Assembly (NCBI RefSeq): GCF_011694515.1
Contig: NZ_CP050192.1
Span: 3,978,172-4,042,171 of the forward strand
From: Mycobacterium sp. DL592
GTDB lineage: Bacteria; Actinomycetota; Actinomycetes; Mycobacteriales; Mycobacteriaceae
DNA: 64,000 nt
Reading direction: 5' to 3'
In this document: piece after piece, positions 51,858 to 60,883 of the stretch
How the letters are laid out: each line of letters opens with the position of its first letter
How positions within the stretch are numbered: position 1 is the stretch's first letter
Position numbers and translations under genes: made by a program
The notes under the pieces: model-generated
What the model was told of the DNA's origin: nothing
Database searches by the model: none
Seen by the model: only the letters and a program-made list of their open reading frames with translations

Positions 51858-52151
51858 TCAACCCCACAGCCGGGCGGCGCGCCGGTCAGCTTCGGCAACG
51901 TCGGTGGCACCGTCGCGTACCGCGTTGCCCAGCCGAATCAGAATGTCGTGCAGGGCGGCTACGGCGTGCTGCCAGCGGGCCTGCTCCGACTGGTAGGCCG
52001 TCGCCGCGTCGCGGGTCCACACCTGCTGCAGCGGCGCGATCTGACGGCTCAGATCGTCGAGGGCAGCACCCAGGCGCGTAGAGGTCTGCTGGATGTCGGC
52101 GAGCACGGTGGCTTCGATCTGGGCGAAGTCATACGACAGGATGGGGTCCAC
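51858..52151 (-). CDS. esxT: ESX-4 WXG100-family protein EsxT
   Basis: A 97-residue helical-hairpin protein similar throughout to Rv3444c: YDFAQIEATVLADIQQTSTR, SRQIAPLQQVWTRDAATAYQ, AVRDGATDVAEADRRAARLWG. The turn has Trp-Thr-Arg instead of W-x-G, as in M. tuberculosis EsxT. Forms a pair with EsxU. GTG at 52151 with AAGGAG 7-8 nt upstream. Confidence 0.92.
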   Translation of the reverse strand: MDPILSYDFAQIEATVLADIQQTSTRLGAALDDLSRQIAPLQQVWTRDAATAYQSEQARWQHAVAALHDILIRLGNAVRDGATDVAEADRRAARLWG

Positions 52152-52165
52152 GGCAGCTGCTCCTT

Positions 52166-52474
52166 CTACTGTTGCCCGGCGACGTCGGCGATCCGCGCGG
52201 CATGCAGATGTGCCGCCTCTCGCAGCGTCTGCTCGTTGTGGCGAATGGTCTCGGCGATGGCGGCCAGCGCACCGGTCAGCCGGTTGGACTCTGTGTTCCA
52301 TTGCGCGACAACCTCTCTGAACCTGGCAGCGGCGAGACCTCCCCATACCGACTGCGGCACCGACTCCATCCGGGCGATGAATCCATGCAACAGGGCGCGG
52401 ATCTCCTCATGGCGGGCGTCGGTGGCAGATGCGGCCGCACGCATCACCTCGAAGTCAGTGTTGAGTGTCGTCAT
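52166..52474 (-). CDS. esxU: ESX-4 WXG100-family protein EsxU
   Basis: A 102-residue WXG100 protein with the turn [18 protein letters not shown] and a C-terminal helix [14 protein letters not shown]. Co-transcribed with esxT (14-bp gap). Partner substrate of the ESX-4 secretion machine. Confidence 0.93.
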
Positions 52475-52528: not shown

Positions 52529-53686
52529 TCATTCGGTTCCACCGATCTCACGCGCCGAGCCCACCGCTGCCTCGCAGACTGAGTCGACCGTCTCGGGTCG
52601 GCCGACAGCGCTCTGGCATCCGATGCTGATCCGGGTGGAGCCGTCGAGAACGACGAACCAGCGGACCTCACGCCCGATGCGGGCTTCGCGGTAGCTCACC
52701 ACCCGACGGTCGGCTGTGCGGCCGTCGGGGTCGAAGTCGACGAAAACTCCGGGTGACTCACGGCTCATCGCGTGCTCCACCGATCGCGCGACGGCGTCAT
52801 AGGTCTGTTCCGGATCGTAGGACTGGGTGATGTGCAGCGCGTCGGCGGGATTCACCGGGGAGGTGAGCTGCACCCGGCGCGACCCCGGCCCTGCGGTGAT
52901 CCGGGTCAGCTGCCAGTCCGGCGGGACGCGCACGACGACACGACCTTCCACCAGGGTGGCCATCCGATCGGCCGTGGCCGGCTCGGTAGGACGCGCGGCA
53001 ATGACGCCTACGGCGCCGATCACGATGGCCACCGTCGCCGCGGCCGCCCATGCCGGTAGCCGCGAGGCGGGCACGATGACAGGACCGCGGGGCTGTTGTG
53101 CGGCCGACGCGAGAGTGTCTTCGATGCGAACCACGCGTGCGCTGATGCTGTTGCGCCGCAATTCTTTCAGGATCAACGACGCCAGCTCCAGCGAATGCGG
53201 CTGGCCAACTGGTGCGTCGACGATCACCGGGGTGCCGATGGCTCCCACCGTGGCGACGACGGCGGCCACGTCAGCGGGTCCGTCAAGCACCTCGGGCGCG
53301 GAGGTGTCGCGGCATACCGCCACCATGTCGGCACCGATCTCGATCACCACTTCGACGGCGTCCACCTGGTGTCGCCCCAGCAGTGCCGACCGCGTCACCG
53401 TCTGCACATCGCCTGTCACCAGAGCCGCCCACTCCCGGATCCGGGCAACCCGCCCCGATGGCCACCAGGTGGGGTGCACGAGAGTCAGGCTCGCCGGACG
53501 GGTGCCGGCGGTGGACGACAGGACGTGCCGCCACAACGCCGCGACGGCCACCGGACGCTCGTGGAGCAGGACCGTCGTGTCGTCGATCCCGGCCAGCGCG
53601 CACGCGACCATCTCCGGATCGAGCGCAGCGCCGTCGCGGGGCGGCAGCTGACGGACAGTCGCGGGGCCGACCTCCAGCACGGTCAC
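52529..53686 (-). CDS. type VII secretion-associated protein (Rv3446c family)
   Basis: A 385-residue protein: an N-terminal region with actin-like ATPase-like features (LLHERPVAVAALWRHVL, LVHPTWWPSGRVARIREWA), one membrane segment (WAAAATVAIVIGAVGVIAA, about residue 213), and a C-terminal domain (VVRVPPDWQLTRITAGPGSR, REVRWFVVLDGSTRISIGCQ). This is the TIGR03931-type protein unique to ESX-4. GTG at 53686 overlaps the eccC4 stop by GTGA. Confidence 0.88.
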   Translation of the reverse strand: MTVLEVGPATVRQLPPRDGAALDPEMVACALAGIDDTTVLLHERPVAVAALWRHVLSSTAGTRPASLTLVHPTWWPSGRVARIREWAALVTGDVQTVTRSALLGRHQVDAVEVVIEIGADMVAVCRDTSAPEVLDGPADVAAVVATVGAIGTPVIVDAPVGQPHSLELASLILKELRRNSISARVVRIEDTLASAAQQPRGPVIVPASRLPAWAAAATVAIVIGAVGVIAARPTEPATADRMATLVEGRVVVRVPPDWQLTRITAGPGSRRVQLTSPVNPADALHITQSYDPEQTYDAVARSVEHAMSRESPGVFVDFDPDGRTADRRVVSYREARIGREVRWFVVLDGSTRISIGCQSAVGRPETVDSVCEAAVGSAREIGGTE

Positions 53687-55029
53687 GGCGGAGACCAACC
53701 GACCTGAATACGCTGTGCGCCATCGCTTGTCACGAGCAAGCCGCGACCTGGCGGTTGTGGTCCCGGGCGGTGCGCACCGGCGACAGGTCCTTCGTCCGGT
53801 GAGCCGCTCATCAGCAGGATGGGGCAGCGCCCGTCCCGGAGATGGGCCAGCAGCGGGTCATAGAGTGCCCGGGCGATGCCCGCGCAGCGCCGGGCGACGA
53901 CGAGGTGCAGGCCGATGTCGGTTGCGTGTGGCAGCAGGTCGACCAGTCCTGCGAGGGTGTCACCCGCGAGCGCACCGACCAGCTCGTGGTCGTCGATCAT
54001 GATGACGATCTCCGGGCCGCTCCACCACGATCGAGACCGCAGTTGATCGGCGGTCACGTCGGCTGCGGGCAGCCGGCCGCGCAACAGTGCCAGCAGGTCC
54101 GGAAGTGTCTCGGCCAGTACAGCGGCGGAGAAGGCATACCCGTACAGGTGCCCTGGGTCGACAACTCCGAGCAGGCTGCGTCGAAAGTCCACGACGAACA
54201 GCTGGGTCTGCTGTTCGTCTGTGCCGCGGACGATGTCGAGGCACAGGGTGCGCAGGGCCGAGGTCTTGCCGCAGTCCCGGTCACCGACGATCAGCAGATG
54301 GGGGTCGCGGCAGAAGTCGAGTACCGTCGGGGTCAGCTCCGGCTCGCCGATGCCCAACAAGACACCGGCGCCGCAGTTGGTCTCGTCGAGTAGGGCGGAG
54401 TATTCGACGAGGGCGGGTAGAAGCCGAACCGGCGGCGCCGTCCACGCGCCCCGGACCGTCACATCCGACGGCGTCGACGTGGCGATGACGAGATGATGGC
54501 CCTCGGCGGTGATTCCGCGGCCCGGCCTGCCCAGCTGAACCAGCGCCGCCTGCTTGCGGTTCATCTCGGAGTCGAGGGGGTCACCGAGTCGTAGCTCGAT
54601 CCGGGTGCCAATCTGGTCCTTGAGGCCTGGACGGATGTCGGCCCAGCGGCCCGCGGTCAGGATGACGTGGACCCCGAAGGACAGACTGTGCCCGGCCAAT
54701 GCGGTGATGCGCGTTTCCAGCTCGCCGAAATCGTCGCGGACGGTGAGCCATCCGTCGACGACGAGGTAGACGTCGCCGAACTCGTCGCGGTGTCCACCCT
54801 CGCGCGATCGAACGATCGCCTCGACGTGGTTGAGCGTTGCACGCACCAGTTCCGGGTCGTGGCGTCCGGCCACCGACCCGACATGCGGCAGGACGCTCAG
54901 CGCGGTCACAGCGCCGCCGCCGAAGTCGAAGCAGTAGAACTGGATTCGACGCGGATCGTGGTGCGCCGCGAGCGCAGTGACGAGGGTGCAGACGGTCTGC
55001 GACTTGCCGCTCTGCGGCGCGCCGACCAC
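53683..55029 (-). CDS. eccC4: EccC4 C-terminal part (ATPase domains 2 and 3), separated by frameshift
   Basis: A 448-codon frame holding the last two FtsK/SpoIIIE-type ATPase domains: Walker A GAPQSGKSQTV (domain 2) and GDRDCGKTSALRTL (domain 3). The first in-frame start is a GTG inside the domain-2 strand before Walker A and lacks a ribosome site. In the same frame, sequence upstream of it (IGLVDRPFEQRRVPLRVD) continues EccC-like coding back to about 55145, so this is the displaced rest of eccC4, not a designed gene like eccCb1. Confidence 0.8.
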   Translation of the reverse strand: MVGAPQSGKSQTVCTLVTALAAHHDPRRIQFYCFDFGGGAVTALSVLPHVGSVAGRHDPELVRATLNHVEAIVRSREGGHRDEFGDVYLVVDGWLTVRDDFGELETRITALAGHSLSFGVHVILTAGRWADIRPGLKDQIGTRIELRLGDPLDSEMNRKQAALVQLGRPGRGITAEGHHLVIATSTPSDVTVRGAWTAPPVRLLPALVEYSALLDETNCGAGVLLGIGEPELTPTVLDFCRDPHLLIVGDRDCGKTSALRTLCLDIVRGTDEQQTQLFVVDFRRSLLGVVDPGHLYGYAFSAAVLAETLPDLLALLRGRLPAADVTADQLRSRSWWSGPEIVIMIDDHELVGALAGDTLAGLVDLLPHATDIGLHLVVARRCAGIARALYDPLLAHLRDGRCPILLMSGSPDEGPVAGAHRPGPQPPGRGLLVTSDGAQRIQVGWSPP

Positions 55030-55118
55030 CGCGACGTGGCCGCCGGCACCGGCGGTGTCGACCCTGAGTGGGACGCGACGCTGCTCGAACGGGCGGTCAA
55101 CGAGGCCGATCTGTGCAC

Positions 55119-56882
55119 TCAGGTCGGGACAGTCGCTGTTTGGCAGATCCGATAGGACAGGTGCGACTCCAAACCGCGCAGCCGGCCCTCGTCCAGACGC
55201 TGGCTGGCCAGCAGCAGGTGCACCCCGAGCGAGCGACCCACCCGGCCGATCATCGCGAACAGGTCCGCGAATTCCGGTTGCCGGTGCAGGAGTTCGGCGA
55301 ACTCGTCGACCACGACGAGCAGCGAGGGCAGCAGAGGCAACTGCGGGTCGTGGTGTCGGGCCAGCCGGTAGGCGGCGAGGTTGACGGCGTTACCGGCGCG
55401 ATGCAGCAGCTGTTGGCGGCGGTGGATTTCGCCGGCGAGCGCTTCCTTGGCGCGCATCACCAGTTGGTCGTCCTCGGACAGGTTCGTGATGATCGCCGCG
55501 ACATGGGCGAGGCCGCCGAGCCCGAGGAAGGTCGCGCCGCCCTTGAAGTCGACGAGCACCAGGTTGAGCTCGTCGGGTGAATGCCGGCAGGCCATCCCGA
55601 CCACGACCGTCCGCAACAGTTCGGACTTGCCCGATCCGGTGGCCCCGATGCACAGCCCATGTGGCCCGTGTCCACCCTCAGCGGCCTCCTTGATGTCGAG
55701 GTCGACGGCGGCGCCGTCGGGAGTGCGGCCCAGCGGCACCCGCAAGGCACCGCCATCACTAGCGGCGTCGACAGCCCGGCTGACCCGGTAGCGCGCCAGA
55801 CGGCGGGCGCAGTCACGTGCCGCAGCGACGCTGAGCGCATCGGCTCGGGCGAACTCCTCGCCGGACACCGAGAGTCGCCCGGCGTCGAGGCGCATCGTGA
55901 GCGCATCGGTGTCGGCGGCCGTGCCGACGACCATGGACGTCACCGCCTCCCCGCCGGCGGCGTAGCGGCCGTCCGACCGGTCGACGAGGACGATCAGGTG
56001 GGGTCGCACCGCGTCGGCGGCAAGGGCTTCGAGATCGGCATGACAGTCGTAGACCATCGGGGTGCCCGAGGCCGGATGGCGGTTGTGCGGCAACCACTTC
56101 AGCCAGTCCCACTCGTCGCGGCGGCCTGGATCGACCATCGCGGCGATCAGCACGGCGTTCGGCGGCTGCAACACCGCGAGCTGACAGATCATCGCTCTCG
56201 CCAGCGCACGCGCGTCGTCCCGGTCACCGTCGAGCGCCAGCGCGGAAACACCGGTCAGCGCAAGGGCGATCGGTGCGTCGTCGACCACGGCATGGGTGCG
56301 GACACACTGCCGGAAGGCCTCCGCAGTGACGGGGTCGAGGTCCTCAGGTGCCGCGACTGGGGGCAACGCGATGCGACGGCACAACCGTTGTGCGCCCAGG
56401 CCCAGCCGCACGTGGCCGAAGTCGCGCTCCCCGGCGCGGCGCTCCCACATCCGCCTGCCCCCGATCAGCGTCCATAGCGCCGCCGGCGCCGGGTGCATCC
56501 AGGTGAGCCGCACATGTTGTCGCTGAGCGGCATCTCGCAGCTGGGCAGCGAGACCGTCGAGGTGGTCGAGATAGCGGCGCCGCTGCTCGTCGAGGCGAAG
56601 GCCACCATGGGCGCGCCCGCTCTGCCACAGCATCGCCAGCATCGACATCAGCGCCATACCGGGCAGCATCAGCATCATCGGACTGACCGGCCTGCCCGAC
56701 CTCGCAGCCCAGACGAGCATGCCGGCGCCGGCGACGACGCCCACCACGAGGGCCGGCGCGAACCGTGCCGGCCCTCCCGTCGGGGCGGGGACCGGCGGTG
56801 CTGGGATCACGATGTCGTCGCCGGGGATCTCCGGTGGCCGCAGTCGTGCATGCCCGCCGAACTCGATGGTCGTCGTGCGCAT
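55119..56882 (-). CDS. eccC4: EccC4 N-terminal part (membrane segments and ATPase domain 1), truncated
   Basis: A 587-residue product of the ESX-4 motor ATPase gene: two N-terminal membrane segments (FAPALVVGVVAGAGMLVW, MLMLPGMALMSMLAML), then ATPase domain 1 with Walker A IGATGSGKSELLRT and Walker B-like LVLVDFKGGA. After LESHLSYRI the frame ends CQTATVPT-stop, where EccC proteins continue with a conserved linker. The total eccC4 span (3200 bp) is not a multiple of three and is ~170 codons shorter than the ~1236-residue M. tuberculosis gene. Start ATG at 56882 with a leaderless-type -10. Confidence 0.85.
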   Translation of the reverse strand: MRTTTIEFGGHARLRPPEIPGDDIVIPAPPVPAPTGGPARFAPALVVGVVAGAGMLVWAARSGRPVSPMMLMLPGMALMSMLAMLWQSGRAHGGLRLDEQRRRYLDHLDGLAAQLRDAAQRQHVRLTWMHPAPAALWTLIGGRRMWERRAGERDFGHVRLGLGAQRLCRRIALPPVAAPEDLDPVTAEAFRQCVRTHAVVDDAPIALALTGVSALALDGDRDDARALARAMICQLAVLQPPNAVLIAAMVDPGRRDEWDWLKWLPHNRHPASGTPMVYDCHADLEALAADAVRPHLIVLVDRSDGRYAAGGEAVTSMVVGTAADTDALTMRLDAGRLSVSGEEFARADALSVAAARDCARRLARYRVSRAVDAASDGGALRVPLGRTPDGAAVDLDIKEAAEGGHGPHGLCIGATGSGKSELLRTVVVGMACRHSPDELNLVLVDFKGGATFLGLGGLAHVAAIITNLSEDDQLVMRAKEALAGEIHRRQQLLHRAGNAVNLAAYRLARHHDPQLPLLPSLLVVVDEFAELLHRQPEFADLFAMIGRVGRSLGVHLLLASQRLDEGRLRGLESHLSYRICQTATVPT

Positions 56883-56972: not shown

Positions 56973-58256
56973 ATGACTGTGAACACCGGTGTGTGCCTCG
57001 TGTCGATCAGGACCGCGCGTACCGAGGCGGAGCTGGCGCTACCTGCCGACAGAGCGCTCAGCGAGTTACTGCCGGCACTGGCCGAGGCCATGGGCGAGCA
57101 TCCGAGCGCTGCTGAGCTGCACCTGATCCGGCCGGACGGCGCCGTCGTGGACTCGACCAGACCCCTGGCACAGTGCGGAGTCCGGGACGGCGACGTGTTG
57201 TTCCTGGCCCCGGCTGACGGTCCCGCGCCCTACCCGGGGATCGACGTGAGCAGCGTACTAGCCCGCGTGGCCGAACGTACCGACCATCGGCCACCTGCCC
57301 CCGGCTCGACATGGGCAGTCCTCACCGTGGTGTGGTCGGCGACCACCGTGGCGATACTGATCTGCCTGGCGGCCCGCGCGGGTGGTCATGACCACATCGT
57401 CTGTGGTTGTGCTGCAGCCACTTTCACACTCGGCGCGGCCGTAAAGGCGCGCCCACAGCGGTGGCTTTCGTTGACCTCGGGTGCCGCGGCGGTGGCCTTG
57501 GCCGCACTCACGGCGCTGCTCACGGCACCCGGGCTGGCAGGTTTCCTGCTGGCGATGTCGGCGGTGGGCGCCACCGCCCTGGTGGCCTGGCGGGTGCTCG
57601 ATCGTGGAGCAGAAGCGTTCGTACCGTTGGCGGCGGTGGGCATGTCGTCGGCCGTGATTTCGGCGACGGCGGTGGTCGGCTGGGTATCCGTGCCTGCGGT
57701 CGGCCCGCTGCTGGCCACCACCGGTGCGGGCGTGCTGGCCTGGTCACCGAGACTTGCGACCGTGATCGGCGGCCTGTCGCCCTCGTCGGGCGGCGACGAT
57801 ATCGAGGTGCGCGCAACGCAGGTGCACCAGACCCTCACCGGGTTGGTGACAGTCGGCGCGGCGACGATGACACTCGGAGCGATCCTCAGCGCGGTGTTCG
57901 CGGCACGACCGGCAGAGGCTGCCGCCTTCATCGGAGTGACAGCGGTGAATATGCTGTTGCGCAGCCGGATTCATGGCGATCGGCGCCAGCGCTCAGTGCT
58001 GCTTATTGCCGGCGGTGTTACCGCGACCGTATTCGCCGCGCGACTGGCCGTCAGCGCACCGTGGGCGGTCGGCCTGCCGTGCGGGCTGACTGTTGTGGCG
58101 GCGATCGTCGCAGTTGCGCTTCGGTCGGCAACAATCCGCCTCTCCCCCTCGGAAATCCGCCTGCTCACGGTCGTCGACGCCGTGGTGAGCGCTGCCGTGG
58201 CGCCCTCCGCATGCGCGGCGGCCGGGGCCTTCAGCGCGATCGGTGGACTCTTGTGA
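56973..58256 (+). CDS. eccD4: ESX-4 membrane channel component EccD4
   Basis: A 427-residue protein: ubiquitin-like N-terminal domain (about 1-90; PADRALSELLPALAEAMGEH, LAQCGVRDGDVLFLAPADGP) and about ten or eleven membrane helices (VLTVVWSATTVAILICLAAR, AAVALAALTALLTAPGLAGF). EccD forms the bulk of the ESX inner-membrane pore. Start at 56973 follows a leaderless-type -10; the longer frame is eccC4 antisense. Stop overlaps the mycP4 GTG by GTGA. Confidence 0.92.
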   Translation: MTVNTGVCLVSIRTARTEAELALPADRALSELLPALAEAMGEHPSAAELHLIRPDGAVVDSTRPLAQCGVRDGDVLFLAPADGPAPYPGIDVSSVLARVAERTDHRPPAPGSTWAVLTVVWSATTVAILICLAARAGGHDHIVCGCAAATFTLGAAVKARPQRWLSLTSGAAAVALAALTALLTAPGLAGFLLAMSAVGATALVAWRVLDRGAEAFVPLAAVGMSSAVISATAVVGWVSVPAVGPLLATTGAGVLAWSPRLATVIGGLSPSSGGDDIEVRATQVHQTLTGLVTVGAATMTLGAILSAVFAARPAEAAAFIGVTAVNMLLRSRIHGDRRQRSVLLIAGGVTATVFAARLAVSAPWAVGLPCGLTVVAAIVAVALRSATIRLSPSEIRLLTVVDAVVSAAVAPSACAAAGAFSAIGGLL

Positions 58257-59572
58257 ACAGGATCGCAGCCGCACCTCTCGGCGTGCTGGCGTCGGTGCTG
58301 ATGGTGGCAGTGCACTGCGCCCCGGCGGCATTCGCCGTGACGCCACCGGCCATCGATGACTCGCTGCTTCCGCCGCCGGCCCCGCCGGCACCACCTGAAC
58401 CCACAGTGCAACGAAAGCCGTGCGCGGTACCACTGGAGGCGACCGCACACCGGCCGCACGCCACCCAGTTCGACGATCTCGACCTGGAATCGATGTGGCG
58501 TCTGACCCGGGGTTCGGGTCAGCGGGTGGCCGTGATCGACACCGGAGTACAGCCGCACCCCAGGCTGCCCAGGGTGATCGCCGGTGGCGACTATGTGTCC
58601 AGCGGCGACGGCAGACAGGACTGCGACGGGCACGGAACCATCGTCGCCGGAATCATCGCCGCCGGCCCGGATGACGCCGACCCCAGCGGGTTCAGCGGTG
58701 TGGCGCCGGAAGCGGCCGTGATCGCAATCCGGCAGTCCAGCAACATGTTCGGGCCGGTGTCAGATCCGGCGAGCGACGGCTTCGGCGATGTCACGACGCT
58801 GGCGATGGCCGTGCGTACGGCCGCGGACATGGGAGCGTCCGTGATCAACATCTCCTCGGTCGCCTGCGCCGAAGGGATGTTCGACGACAGGGTGCTCGGT
58901 GCGGCGCTGGCCTATGCGGTCGACGTCAAGGACGCGGTGGTGGTTGCCGCCGCCGGCAACGTCGGGGGCCCGGGCCAGTGCGCGGCACAGAACACCGGCG
59001 AACAGCCGACGGTGATCGCCAGCCCCGCGTGGTACGACGACTACGTCCTGACGGTCGCCTCGGTCAACGGCGAACGCGACCCCTCGGCGTTCAGCCTCAA
59101 CGGCCCGTGGGTCGACGTCGCCGCCCGCGGGGAAGCCGTCGTATCCCTCGACCGGGACGGTGCGGGGATCGTCGACACCCTGGCAGGGCCGTCCGGCCCG
59201 ACGCCGATCTCGGGAACCAGCTACGCCACCCCGGTCGTCAGCGGTCTGGTGGCGCTCGTGCGGGCCCGCTTCCCGAGACTGTCGGCGCGGCAGGTGATGA
59301 CGAGGATCGAATCCACCGCACACAAGCCATCCCGCGACTGGAATCCCATGGTGGGCAACGGCATCGTCGACGGTATGGCTGCGCTGAGCGACCAGCCCGT
59401 CGCATCGTCGACCCCCCGGCCCGCCCCGATACCCGCTCCGGCGCAGACCAGTCCCGAGGCGGCGCCCTCGCGCGGGGTCATCGTGGCGGGCGCTGCGCTG
59501 TGTCTGATCGGCCTTGCGGTCGCCTCGACACGGCTACGGCGCCGCCCCGTCGAGGACGTCCCGGCCGGCTAG
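58253..59572 (+). CDS. mycP4: ESX-4 mycosin protease MycP4
   Basis: A 439-residue subtilisin-like serine protease with signal peptide (LGVLASVLMVAVHCAPAAFA), catalytic Asp in VAVIDTGVQPH, His in DCDGHGTIVAG, Ser in ISGTSYATPVVSG, and a C-terminal membrane anchor (VIVAGAALCLIGLAVAS). Mycosins cap the periplasmic side of ESX systems. Translationally coupled to eccD4; its last 39 bp overlap the opposite-strand eccB4 gene. Confidence 0.94.
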   Translation: MNRIAAAPLGVLASVLMVAVHCAPAAFAVTPPAIDDSLLPPPAPPAPPEPTVQRKPCAVPLEATAHRPHATQFDDLDLESMWRLTRGSGQRVAVIDTGVQPHPRLPRVIAGGDYVSSGDGRQDCDGHGTIVAGIIAAGPDDADPSGFSGVAPEAAVIAIRQSSNMFGPVSDPASDGFGDVTTLAMAVRTAADMGASVINISSVACAEGMFDDRVLGAALAYAVDVKDAVVVAAAGNVGGPGQCAAQNTGEQPTVIASPAWYDDYVLTVASVNGERDPSAFSLNGPWVDVAARGEAVVSLDRDGAGIVDTLAGPSGPTPISGTSYATPVVSGLVALVRARFPRLSARQVMTRIESTAHKPSRDWNPMVGNGIVDGMAALSDQPVASSTPRPAPIPAPAQTSPEAAPSRGVIVAGAALCLIGLAVASTRLRRRPVEDVPAG

Positions 59573-60883
59573 TGCGGATTCTCGGCTGAGTTCGGCCCCG
59601 GCGGGGAGCGCGGCGAGGAACGCCCACGGCACCGCGGCGGGATCCCGGCCGAGCCCCAGGGCATCTGCCGCCGCCGAATCACGCACGGGGAAAAGAACTC
59701 CCGTATCGGAGAGAAGATACCGTCCGGATGTCCCGGCGGTGACGTCGATGCTGTGTCCCGGCGGGATGGCGACCGCGTCGACGTTCGGTCCGTCGCCGTC
59801 TGCGGCGGCCAGCGCGACGGTGCTGCTGCCGTCCGTGCCGACGGGTCCGACGGCGATCCCGGCAGTGCCGGAGCGCCACGTCGCACACACCCCGACGGAG
59901 TCGTCGCCGAGCAGTGTCGGCACTACGTCGGGGTAAGTGGCCACCGGCAAGGTGTCGACGAGAGCAGCGCCGGCGACGACATCGGGCGATACGGAGGTGA
60001 TGTCGGTGGTGGCGGCCGGGTCAGCGAAGCGGATCAGGTCGGCAGTCAGGCGGCCGACCCGTTGGAATCCCTCACGCAGGGCGACGTAGAACTCCTCTGA
60101 TCCCGCCCTGACCGTGCGCACCACGCTGCCGACGGCGAACCCGGCAACACCGGACGGCTGCCCGACCCCGGTGATTCGCGGCGGCCCGATCGCAGGAACC
60201 TCGGGGATGACGCTGAGCAATGTCGAGGACACCGGCCGTGGCCTGTGCCCGTCCAGATGCAGCGTACGGGCCGTCACCGGATCGGCGGGATCGACGCGGG
60301 CCCGGCGACCGTCGTAGAGCAGATACGTCATCGCATCGCCGTGTGCCGCGGACACCAGGACACCGGCGCCGGGCCCGAGGTCGGCCAGGGATTCCCAGCC
60401 GGTGACACCGACCGACGTCGACCGCTCAGCACCGTCGCACACAGCCCAACGCTGATCGACCGGCGGGATCAGTTCACCCACCGCCCGCGGTGCTCCGGGG
60501 ATGCCGAGGACGGGACCGCGCACGATCCCGCGCAGGGCGGTGTCGTCGACAACCCTCGGCGCTGCCGGACCGCCCAGGATCAGCTCGGCGGAGACGAGGT
60601 CGGTCACTGGCCGCAGGCGTTCACCCACCCGGACGAACAGTGCACCGGACTGGCGTGACATCACCAGGGGGCTGTCGCCGGGCACCGGACGCACCATCGT
60701 CGTCGCCGCCATGACCGCCCCGACACCCAGCGCCAGGCCACATCCGGCCACCATGGCGCGGCGATGCGCGCGGACCGGATCCTCCCCGGGCGCCACTGGC
60801 CGGCCCAGGACCGCGTATTCGAGTCGGCGCCACTGAAACCGGCTGGCGCTGGCCTGTAACCGAAGGGACCCGGGGCGCCGCAC
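59534..60883 (-). CDS. eccB4: ESX-4 core component EccB4
   Basis: A 449-residue single-pass membrane protein: short cytoplasmic N-terminus (ASRFQWRRLEYAVLGR), membrane helix MVAGCGLALGVGAVMAAT (about residues 44-61), and a periplasmic repeat domain (LVMSRQSGALFVRVGERLRP ... VDTLPVATYPDVVPTLLGDD). EccB proteins form the periplasmic part of the ESX complex. GTG at 60883 has TAGGGT six nt upstream (leaderless type). Its 3' end overlaps mycP4. Confidence 0.93.
   Translation of the reverse strand: MRRPGSLRLQASASRFQWRRLEYAVLGRPVAPGEDPVRAHRRAMVAGCGLALGVGAVMAATTMVRPVPGDSPLVMSRQSGALFVRVGERLRPVTDLVSAELILGGPAAPRVVDDTALRGIVRGPVLGIPGAPRAVGELIPPVDQRWAVCDGAERSTSVGVTGWESLADLGPGAGVLVSAAHGDAMTYLLYDGRRARVDPADPVTARTLHLDGHRPRPVSSTLLSVIPEVPAIGPPRITGVGQPSGVAGFAVGSVVRTVRAGSEEFYVALREGFQRVGRLTADLIRFADPAATTDITSVSPDVVAGAALVDTLPVATYPDVVPTLLGDDSVGVCATWRSGTAGIAVGPVGTDGSSTVALAAADGDGPNVDAVAIPPGHSIDVTAGTSGRYLLSDTGVLFPVRDSAAADALGLGRDPAAVPWAFLAALPAGAELSRESALAGRDVLDGAAP

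What the first reader, a model, noticed from the sequence alone, without database searches (positions are those of the whole stretch)
53683..56882. eccC4 is frameshifted with an apparent internal deletion, so ESX-4 may be non-functional
Seen directly: the first frame ends at 55119 just after the EccC-like LESHLSYRI; the rest of the protein (from about 55145, IGLVDRPFEQRRVPL onward) is in another frame. The whole span is 3200 bp, not divisible by three, and about 170 codons shorter than the ~1236-residue M. tuberculosis EccC4 I recall. The missing part is the linker between ATPase domains 1 and 2. All other ESX-4 genes look intact, so this may be a recent mutation, a strain feature or an assembly error.
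Basis: partly seen in the sequence, partly recalled or inferred. Interest (0 to 1): 0.7.

Follow-up and report, generated by a model that had tools for sequence, protein, structure and literature searches.

The report
Broken ESX-4 secretion motor gene
In this mycobacterium the gene for the motor of one protein-secretion machine has lost a few hundred bases between two short repeats and been knocked out of frame, and similar breaks in other mycobacteria hint that this machine is lost repeatedly.

Summary
Confirmed. eccC4 (53683-56882, minus strand) is one gene cut by one lesion. There two copies of CCGGATCTG lie 349 bp apart; here one copy of CGGATCTG remains (55144-55151) and what lay between is gone. 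The two collinear blocks overlap by exactly those 8 bp. 349 is not a multiple of three, so the frame breaks.

The second fragment has no start codon before GTG 55029, at the Walker A of domain 2, so a two-subunit EccC4 is unlikely. The other ESX-4 genes checked are full length; no second EccC4 and no EccE near the locus were found. The fragments do not evolve faster than in G310, so the deletion looks recent. Strain or species feature: undecided.

Outside the window: other mycobacteria have different eccC4 lesions, and four carry serine-integrase islands inserted inside eccC4, of which my paper searches gave no report. ESX-4 is probably dead here; the lesion itself is ordinary.

The parts
55119..56882 (-). 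EccC4 N-terminal fragment, 587 aa: membrane/DUF part and most of ATPase domain 1, ends ...SHLSYRICQTATVPT then stop
   Evidence: TIGR03924 EccCa 619 bits, above its cut-off, but matched only to profile position 625 of 673; stored in the protein collection as P0001, 587 aa
55623..55646 (-). Walker A (GATGSGKS) of ATPase domain 1, retained
   Evidence: sequence motif
55299..55322 (-). Walker B (LLVVVDEF) of ATPase domain 1, retained
   Evidence: sequence motif
55144..55151 (-). deletion junction: the single remaining copy of the 8-bp direct repeat CGGATCTG
   Evidence: 349-nt gap here against G310, which has two copies 349 bp apart; collinear blastn blocks overlap by exactly 55144-55151 and are 341 bp apart in G310
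53683..55146 (-). EccC4 C-terminal fragment in another frame: ATPase domains 2 and 3; first start codon in this frame is GTG 55029
   Evidence: TIGR03925 EccCb 538 bits; 83% identical to G310; list of start codons
55000..55023 (-). Walker A (GAPQSGKS) of ATPase domain 2, two codons after the only usable start, GTG 55029
54262..54285 (-). P-loop (GDRDCGKT) of ATPase domain 3
52529..53698 (-). Rv3446c-like T7SS-associated protein, full length
   Evidence: TIGR03931 106 bits, cut-off 47.6; 1-392 of the G310 orthologue covered
52166..52474 (-). EsxU-like WXG100 protein, full length
   Evidence: TIGR03930; 93% identical to G310
51858..52346 (-). EsxT-like WXG100 protein (start codon uncertain; WXG100 domain at residues 70-158 of this ORF)
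   Evidence: TIGR03930; 88% identical to G310
56973..58256 (+). EccD4, full length
   Evidence: TIGR03920 112 bits, cut-off 95; 1-427 of G310 covered
58253..59572 (+). MycP4 mycosin (start inferred)
   Evidence: TIGR03921 389 bits; 85% identical to G310 over 24-479
59534..60883 (-). EccB4, full length
   Evidence: TIGR03919 346 bits; 1-448 of G310 covered

Best explanation
eccC4 is a recent loss-of-function allele. Shown by comparison: relative to G310, one deletion of 349 bp (net length in G310 coordinates) joined two copies of an 8-9 bp direct repeat and left one; it removed the last part of ATPase domain 1, the domain 1-2 linker and the lead-in to domain 2, and shifted the frame, so translation stops eight codons past the last conserved residues. 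Inferred: replication slippage or end joining at the repeat made the deletion; the N-terminal piece may still be made, but with a damaged domain 1 and without domains 2-3 (domain 3 reads the substrate signal in ESX-1) it cannot drive ESX-4, so EsxU/EsxT export by ESX-4, and recipient function in distributive conjugal transfer if this species has it, are lost, while the other ESX systems of the genome are unaffected.
For: Two frames, 82% and 81-83% identical to one intact G310 ORF. The only out-of-frame gap is 349 nt; one repeat copy here, two in G310. Collinear blocks overlap by exactly the 8 bp. Chance of a repeat of 8 bp or more at a random deletion end 4.8e-4. The removed stretch holds 11 columns invariant in 52 EccC4 relatives and, in an AlphaFold2 model of the M. 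anyangense EccC4, two strands and two helices at the end of domain 1. No rate excess in either fragment on this branch: 26:33 and 33:24 residue changes here:G310 with outgroup G114, 23:27 and 25:29 with G299; dN/dS 0.27 and 0.23; at most about 8-18% of the branch since G310 can have been neutral. No second EccC4: the other EccC loci of this genome are 45% identical at best in domain 1 and 37% at best in domains 2-3. EccC4 removal disables ESX-4 in M. abscessus (PMC11791044, abstract and two sections read); recipient disruption of eccC4 abolishes conjugal transfer in M. smegmatis (PMC10906988, passages).
Against: No reads or second isolate were available. Both fragments and the rest of the locus keep clean frames under purifying selection, which is also what a still-working two-part protein would show. 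The pre-deletion sequence of this species is inferred from G310, not seen; 41 direct repeats of 9 bp or more at 100-1000 bp spacing exist in the G310 gene, so this pair is not special. The neighbouring Rv3446c-like gene does show a rate excess on this branch with one outgroup (31:13; 26:18 with the other) and eccD4 a weak one (33:20; 23:15), so the locus is not uniformly quiet.
Confidence: 0.84

Rival explanations
1. Sequencing or assembly artefact, or a mutation only in the sequenced subculture: the natural strain has an intact gene.
For: A single assembly; no second genome of the species found: in the protein collection the best hit to the intact G310 protein is 68% identical, whereas an intact copy from this species should be about 82% (7,996 candidates scored, best 120 listed).
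Against: An 8-9 bp repeat is far too short to collapse an assembly; the flanks are collinear with G310 on both sides over most of the window; in a rough check of 57 G310 genes of the region (42 full length in the window, 8 partial, 7 not matched) eccC4 is the only one whose two halves match at above 80% in different frames.
Confidence: 0.08
2. A working two-subunit EccC4, like EccCa1/EccCb1 of ESX-1.
For: Both pieces keep long open frames and low dN/dS; ESX-1 EccC is naturally split between ATPase domains 1 and 2 (PMC6954902, passages).
Against: The first start codon of the second piece lies at the Walker A of domain 2 and the 31 bases before it show no ribosome-binding site by eye; the first piece lacks the end of domain 1, unlike a clean split between domains; the protein collection holds the first piece (P0001), but the search with the second lists nothing closer than 66%; conservation is equally explained by recent age.
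Confidence: 0.05
3. Ribosomal frameshifting joins the two frames into one shortened EccC4.
For: The frames overlap by about 30 nt between the junction and the stop.
Against: No heptamer of the usual slippery type seen in the overlap by eye; the product would still lack 116 codons, including the invariant end of domain 1.
Confidence: 0.02

Closest known systems
EccC4 (Rv3447c family) of mycobacterial ESX-4; closest intact copy G310, then M. anyangense (G114, 68-70%)
   Same: Same locus order, same two EccC models (TIGR03924, TIGR03925), collinear neighbours
   Different: About 116 codons missing and frame broken
EccCa1/EccCb1 of ESX-1
   Same: Motor divided between ATPase domains 1 and 2 (PMC6954902, passages)
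   Different: Here the break removes the end of domain 1 and gives the second part no proper start
Other disrupted ESX-4 loci: eccB4 of M. shottsii split by an insertion sequence (PMC9241763, passages)
   Same: Loss of an ESX-4 core gene
   Different: Insertion sequence in eccB4 there; direct-repeat deletion in eccC4 here
M. sarraceniae eccC4 (G188, P0005)
   Same: Product also ends at ...LESHLS, within about three codons of the junction here
   Different: One in-frame stop codon, no deletion; downstream frame otherwise intact

Membership tests
EccC4 / ESX-4 locus | EccCa and EccCb domain models above cut-off | tested here: met
   N fragment TIGR03924 619 bits (cut-off 509); C fragment TIGR03925 538 bits (cut-off 347)
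EccC4 / ESX-4 locus | one continuous reading frame with three ATPase domains | tested here: not met
   two frames, 349-nt gap
EccC4 / ESX-4 locus | neighbours eccB4, eccD4, mycP4, Rv3446c-like, esxU/esxT | tested here: met
   all full length against G310; NCBIfam matches
EccC4 / ESX-4 locus | EccE4 (only in the M. abscessus/chelonae/immunogenum group, PMC10906988 passages) | tested here: not met
   three EccE places in the genome (1 kb, 840 kb, 4.69 Mb), none near the locus at 3.98-4.04 Mb; same as nearly all mycobacteria
ESX-1-type split EccCa/EccCb | complete ATPase domain 1 in the first subunit | tested here: not met
   last part of domain 1 missing
ESX-1-type split EccCa/EccCb | second subunit with its own start ahead of domain 2 | tested here: not met
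   first start GTG 55029, two codons before GAPQSGKS
Pseudogene by direct-repeat deletion | single junction on a short direct repeat with two copies in an intact relative | tested here: met
Pseudogene by direct-repeat deletion | loss of function | not testable with these tools
   inferred from domain loss; needs secretion or conjugation assay

The most novel reading that the evidence does not exclude
ESX-4 is being switched off repeatedly across mycobacteria at its motor gene eccC4, by deletion (here), stop codons and, above all, serine-integrase islands that use the ATPase-motif codons of eccC4 as their attachment site; because ESX-4 makes a cell a recipient for distributive conjugal transfer, losing it may be selected (by islands or hosts) as a way to shut out incoming DNA, and where an island is the cause the switch could be reversible by excision.
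Probability: 0.25. Interest if true: 0.68.

Novelty: new member of a known kind. Interest (0 to 1): 0.36.

Why it matters
It corrects an annotation that would count this genome as ESX-4 positive and gives a natural EccC4 null with the rest of the locus intact, useful because ESX-4 function in species without EccE4 is debated. The comparison it prompted shows eccC4 to be hit by several kinds of lesion in other mycobacteria, including islands that land in it, which would tie loss of ESX-4 to control of conjugal DNA uptake if confirmed.

Tried and rejected
Considered and set aside: an island or insertion at the break (the window keeps the DFKGGATFL site at 55524-55547 uninterrupted, and the junction shows a clean deletion); a backup EccC4 elsewhere; decay of the whole locus (all neighbours full length).

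G023, flagged with one stop in the N-part search, showed no stop when aligned with the G310 protein and was dropped. Four short frames (G181, G391, G252, G128) were contig ends and dropped. Lesion rate against eccC3 of ESX-3: 5 of 84 finished non-index genomes with an eccC4 match against 0 of 80 with an eccC3 match, Fisher p 0.059, not significant. Limits of that count: the single-contig genomes were picked by eye from the table; finished genomes with no eccC4 match (at least G091, G093, G126, G131) were left out of it; four finished genomes without an eccC3 match at the threshold (G002, G070, G114, G388) were not examined; two of the five (G009, G061) also have a broken Rv3446c-like gene and may be sequencing indels; where only a paralogue matched (for example G402) the state of eccC4 was not resolved.

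The species could not be named; one scan of the named genome collection gave only distant relatives.

Full report
Observation. The window lies in a single-contig 5,100,839-bp genome. eccC4 is on the minus strand. The first frame (ATG 56882) ends at 55119; the rest is in another frame down to 53683. The two pieces match EccCa (TIGR03924) and EccCb (TIGR03925) above their cut-offs.

Closest relative. Among 297 genomes searched with the N piece and 396 with the C piece (each an even draw from a larger group) the best is G310, a finished 5.6-Mb genome of the same genus, with one open EccC4 frame of 1186 residues. Most of the window is collinear with G310 at 83-95% DNA identity.

The lesion. Globally aligned, the window gene differs from the G310 gene by a 12-nt in-frame gap and a 349-nt gap. 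In G310 the ends of the missing stretch carry CCGGATCTG, 349 bp apart; the window has one CGGATCTG at 55144-55151. In a plain blastn of the region the two blocks share exactly these 8 bp and are 341 bp apart in G310. A random 100-1000 bp deletion in this gene would end on a repeat of 8 bp or more about 5 times in 10,000; the gene holds 41 direct repeats of 9 bp or more at such spacing. G114 and G299 keep the upstream copy of CGGATCTG and only degenerate forms of the downstream one.

What is lost. In G310 the EccCa model ends at residue 632 and EccCb begins at 667; the removed residues run from about 583 to 699, so the deletion takes about 49 residues of domain 1, the linker and the lead-in to domain 2. 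In the alignment of 52 EccC4 relatives 11 invariant columns fall in it. In an AlphaFold2 model of M. anyangense EccC4 (mean pLDDT 77, pTM 0.47) the removed stretch has two helices and two strands at the end of domain 1, then a low-confidence linker (647-676) and a helix.

Can it still work? The second frame has no start before GTG 55029, two codons before the Walker A of domain 2, with no ribosome-binding site visible by eye. The protein collection holds the N fragment (P0001; 5 member sequences, one contig); a search with the C fragment lists nothing closer than 66%. The genome's other EccC loci are distant paralogues. Three EccE genes exist, none near this locus; EccE4 is reported missing from nearly all mycobacteria (PMC10906988, passages).

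Age. dN/dS between window and G310 is 0.27 (N piece) and 0.23 (C piece), as in other genes of the locus (0.08-0.38). Residue changes on this branch against G310 are 26:33 and 33:24 (outgroup G114), 23:27 and 25:29 (outgroup G299). At these rates at most about 8-18% of the branch can have been neutral. The Rv3446c-like neighbour does show an excess with one outgroup (31:13, chi-square 7.4; 26:18 with the other). So the deletion is recent, or the pieces are still used; the first is simpler.

Other lesions in the genus. G061 (frames broken in eccC4 and Rv3446c-like) and G184 (island) came from other searches. At least four finished genomes (G091, G093, G126, G131) had no eccC4 match at the threshold though they have eccC3; these were not examined. 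Against eccC3 the excess of lesions is not significant (5 of 84 against 0 of 80, p 0.059; limits in Tried and rejected).

Islands in eccC4. In G010, G184 and G302 the gene is interrupted at the same codons (DFKGGATFL, about residue 457 of G310), with the C half on the same contig and strand 14.8, 13.2 and 16.3 kb away. The first island gene beside the N half is a large serine integrase: in G010 and G184 Resolvase plus Recombinase domains, phrog_95; in G302 72% identical to that of G184. In G178 a 41% identical integrase sits beside an N half that ends at the Walker A codons (residue 423), with the C half about 9.6 kb away. So 4 of the 30 integrase loci fetched (110 of 396 genomes had a match) lie beside an eccC4 half. 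The word EccC does not occur in the main text of two papers that list mycobacterial attB sites (PMC10654092, PMC8092301, term searches and passages; their supplements were not open to me), and the searches gave no report of it; of the eight papers I looked at passages of two.

Mechanism and verdict. Most likely a recent repeat-mediated deletion killed eccC4 and with it ESX-4 secretion. In M. abscessus loss of EccC4 strongly reduces EsxT export and the paper calls ESX-4 non-functional (PMC11791044, abstract and sections 4 and 7 read); in M. smegmatis recipients loss of eccC4 abolishes conjugal transfer, and in M. [quoted passage not shown] The window finding is a well-defined but ordinary pseudogene; the recurrent lesions, and the islands in particular, are the more interesting lead.

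Noticed in passing
L126 (G010), L124 and L122 (G184), L125 (G302); outside the window: Serine-integrase islands of 13-16 kb inserted at the DFKGGATFL codons of eccC4, splitting it; the two halves lie on one contig and strand in each. G010 carries a tyrosine-type integrase near its other end as well.
   Followed up: partly
L151, L157, L158 (G178): A more distant serine integrase beside an eccC4 half that ends at the Walker A codons, with the rest about 9.6 kb away: a second landing site in the same gene.
   Followed up: partly
L123 and L092 (G128): Two contigs end at exactly the same eccC4 codon, sharing 8 bp; may mark an island or simply an assembly break.
   Followed up: no
   Followed up: partly
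L088 (G092): ESX-4 locus with lesions in eccC4, eccB4 and mycP4 and a shortened eccD4 match: decay of the whole locus or a poor assembly.
   Followed up: no
G091, G093, G126, G131: Finished genomes with an eccC3 match but no eccC4 C-part match at the threshold: candidates for absence or decay of ESX-4.
   Followed up: no
L105:7288-11745 (own genome, about 3.04 Mb): A 1485-residue EssC/EccC-like ATPase (TIGR03928 547 bits, below the 778 cut-off) beside a weak WXG100 match, with no match to the ESX-4 eccB, eccD or mycP proteins within the 18 kb fetched.
   Followed up: no
52529-53698: The Rv3446c-like neighbour shows more residue changes on this branch than on the G310 branch with one outgroup (31:13), less clearly with the other (26:18).
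   Followed up: no
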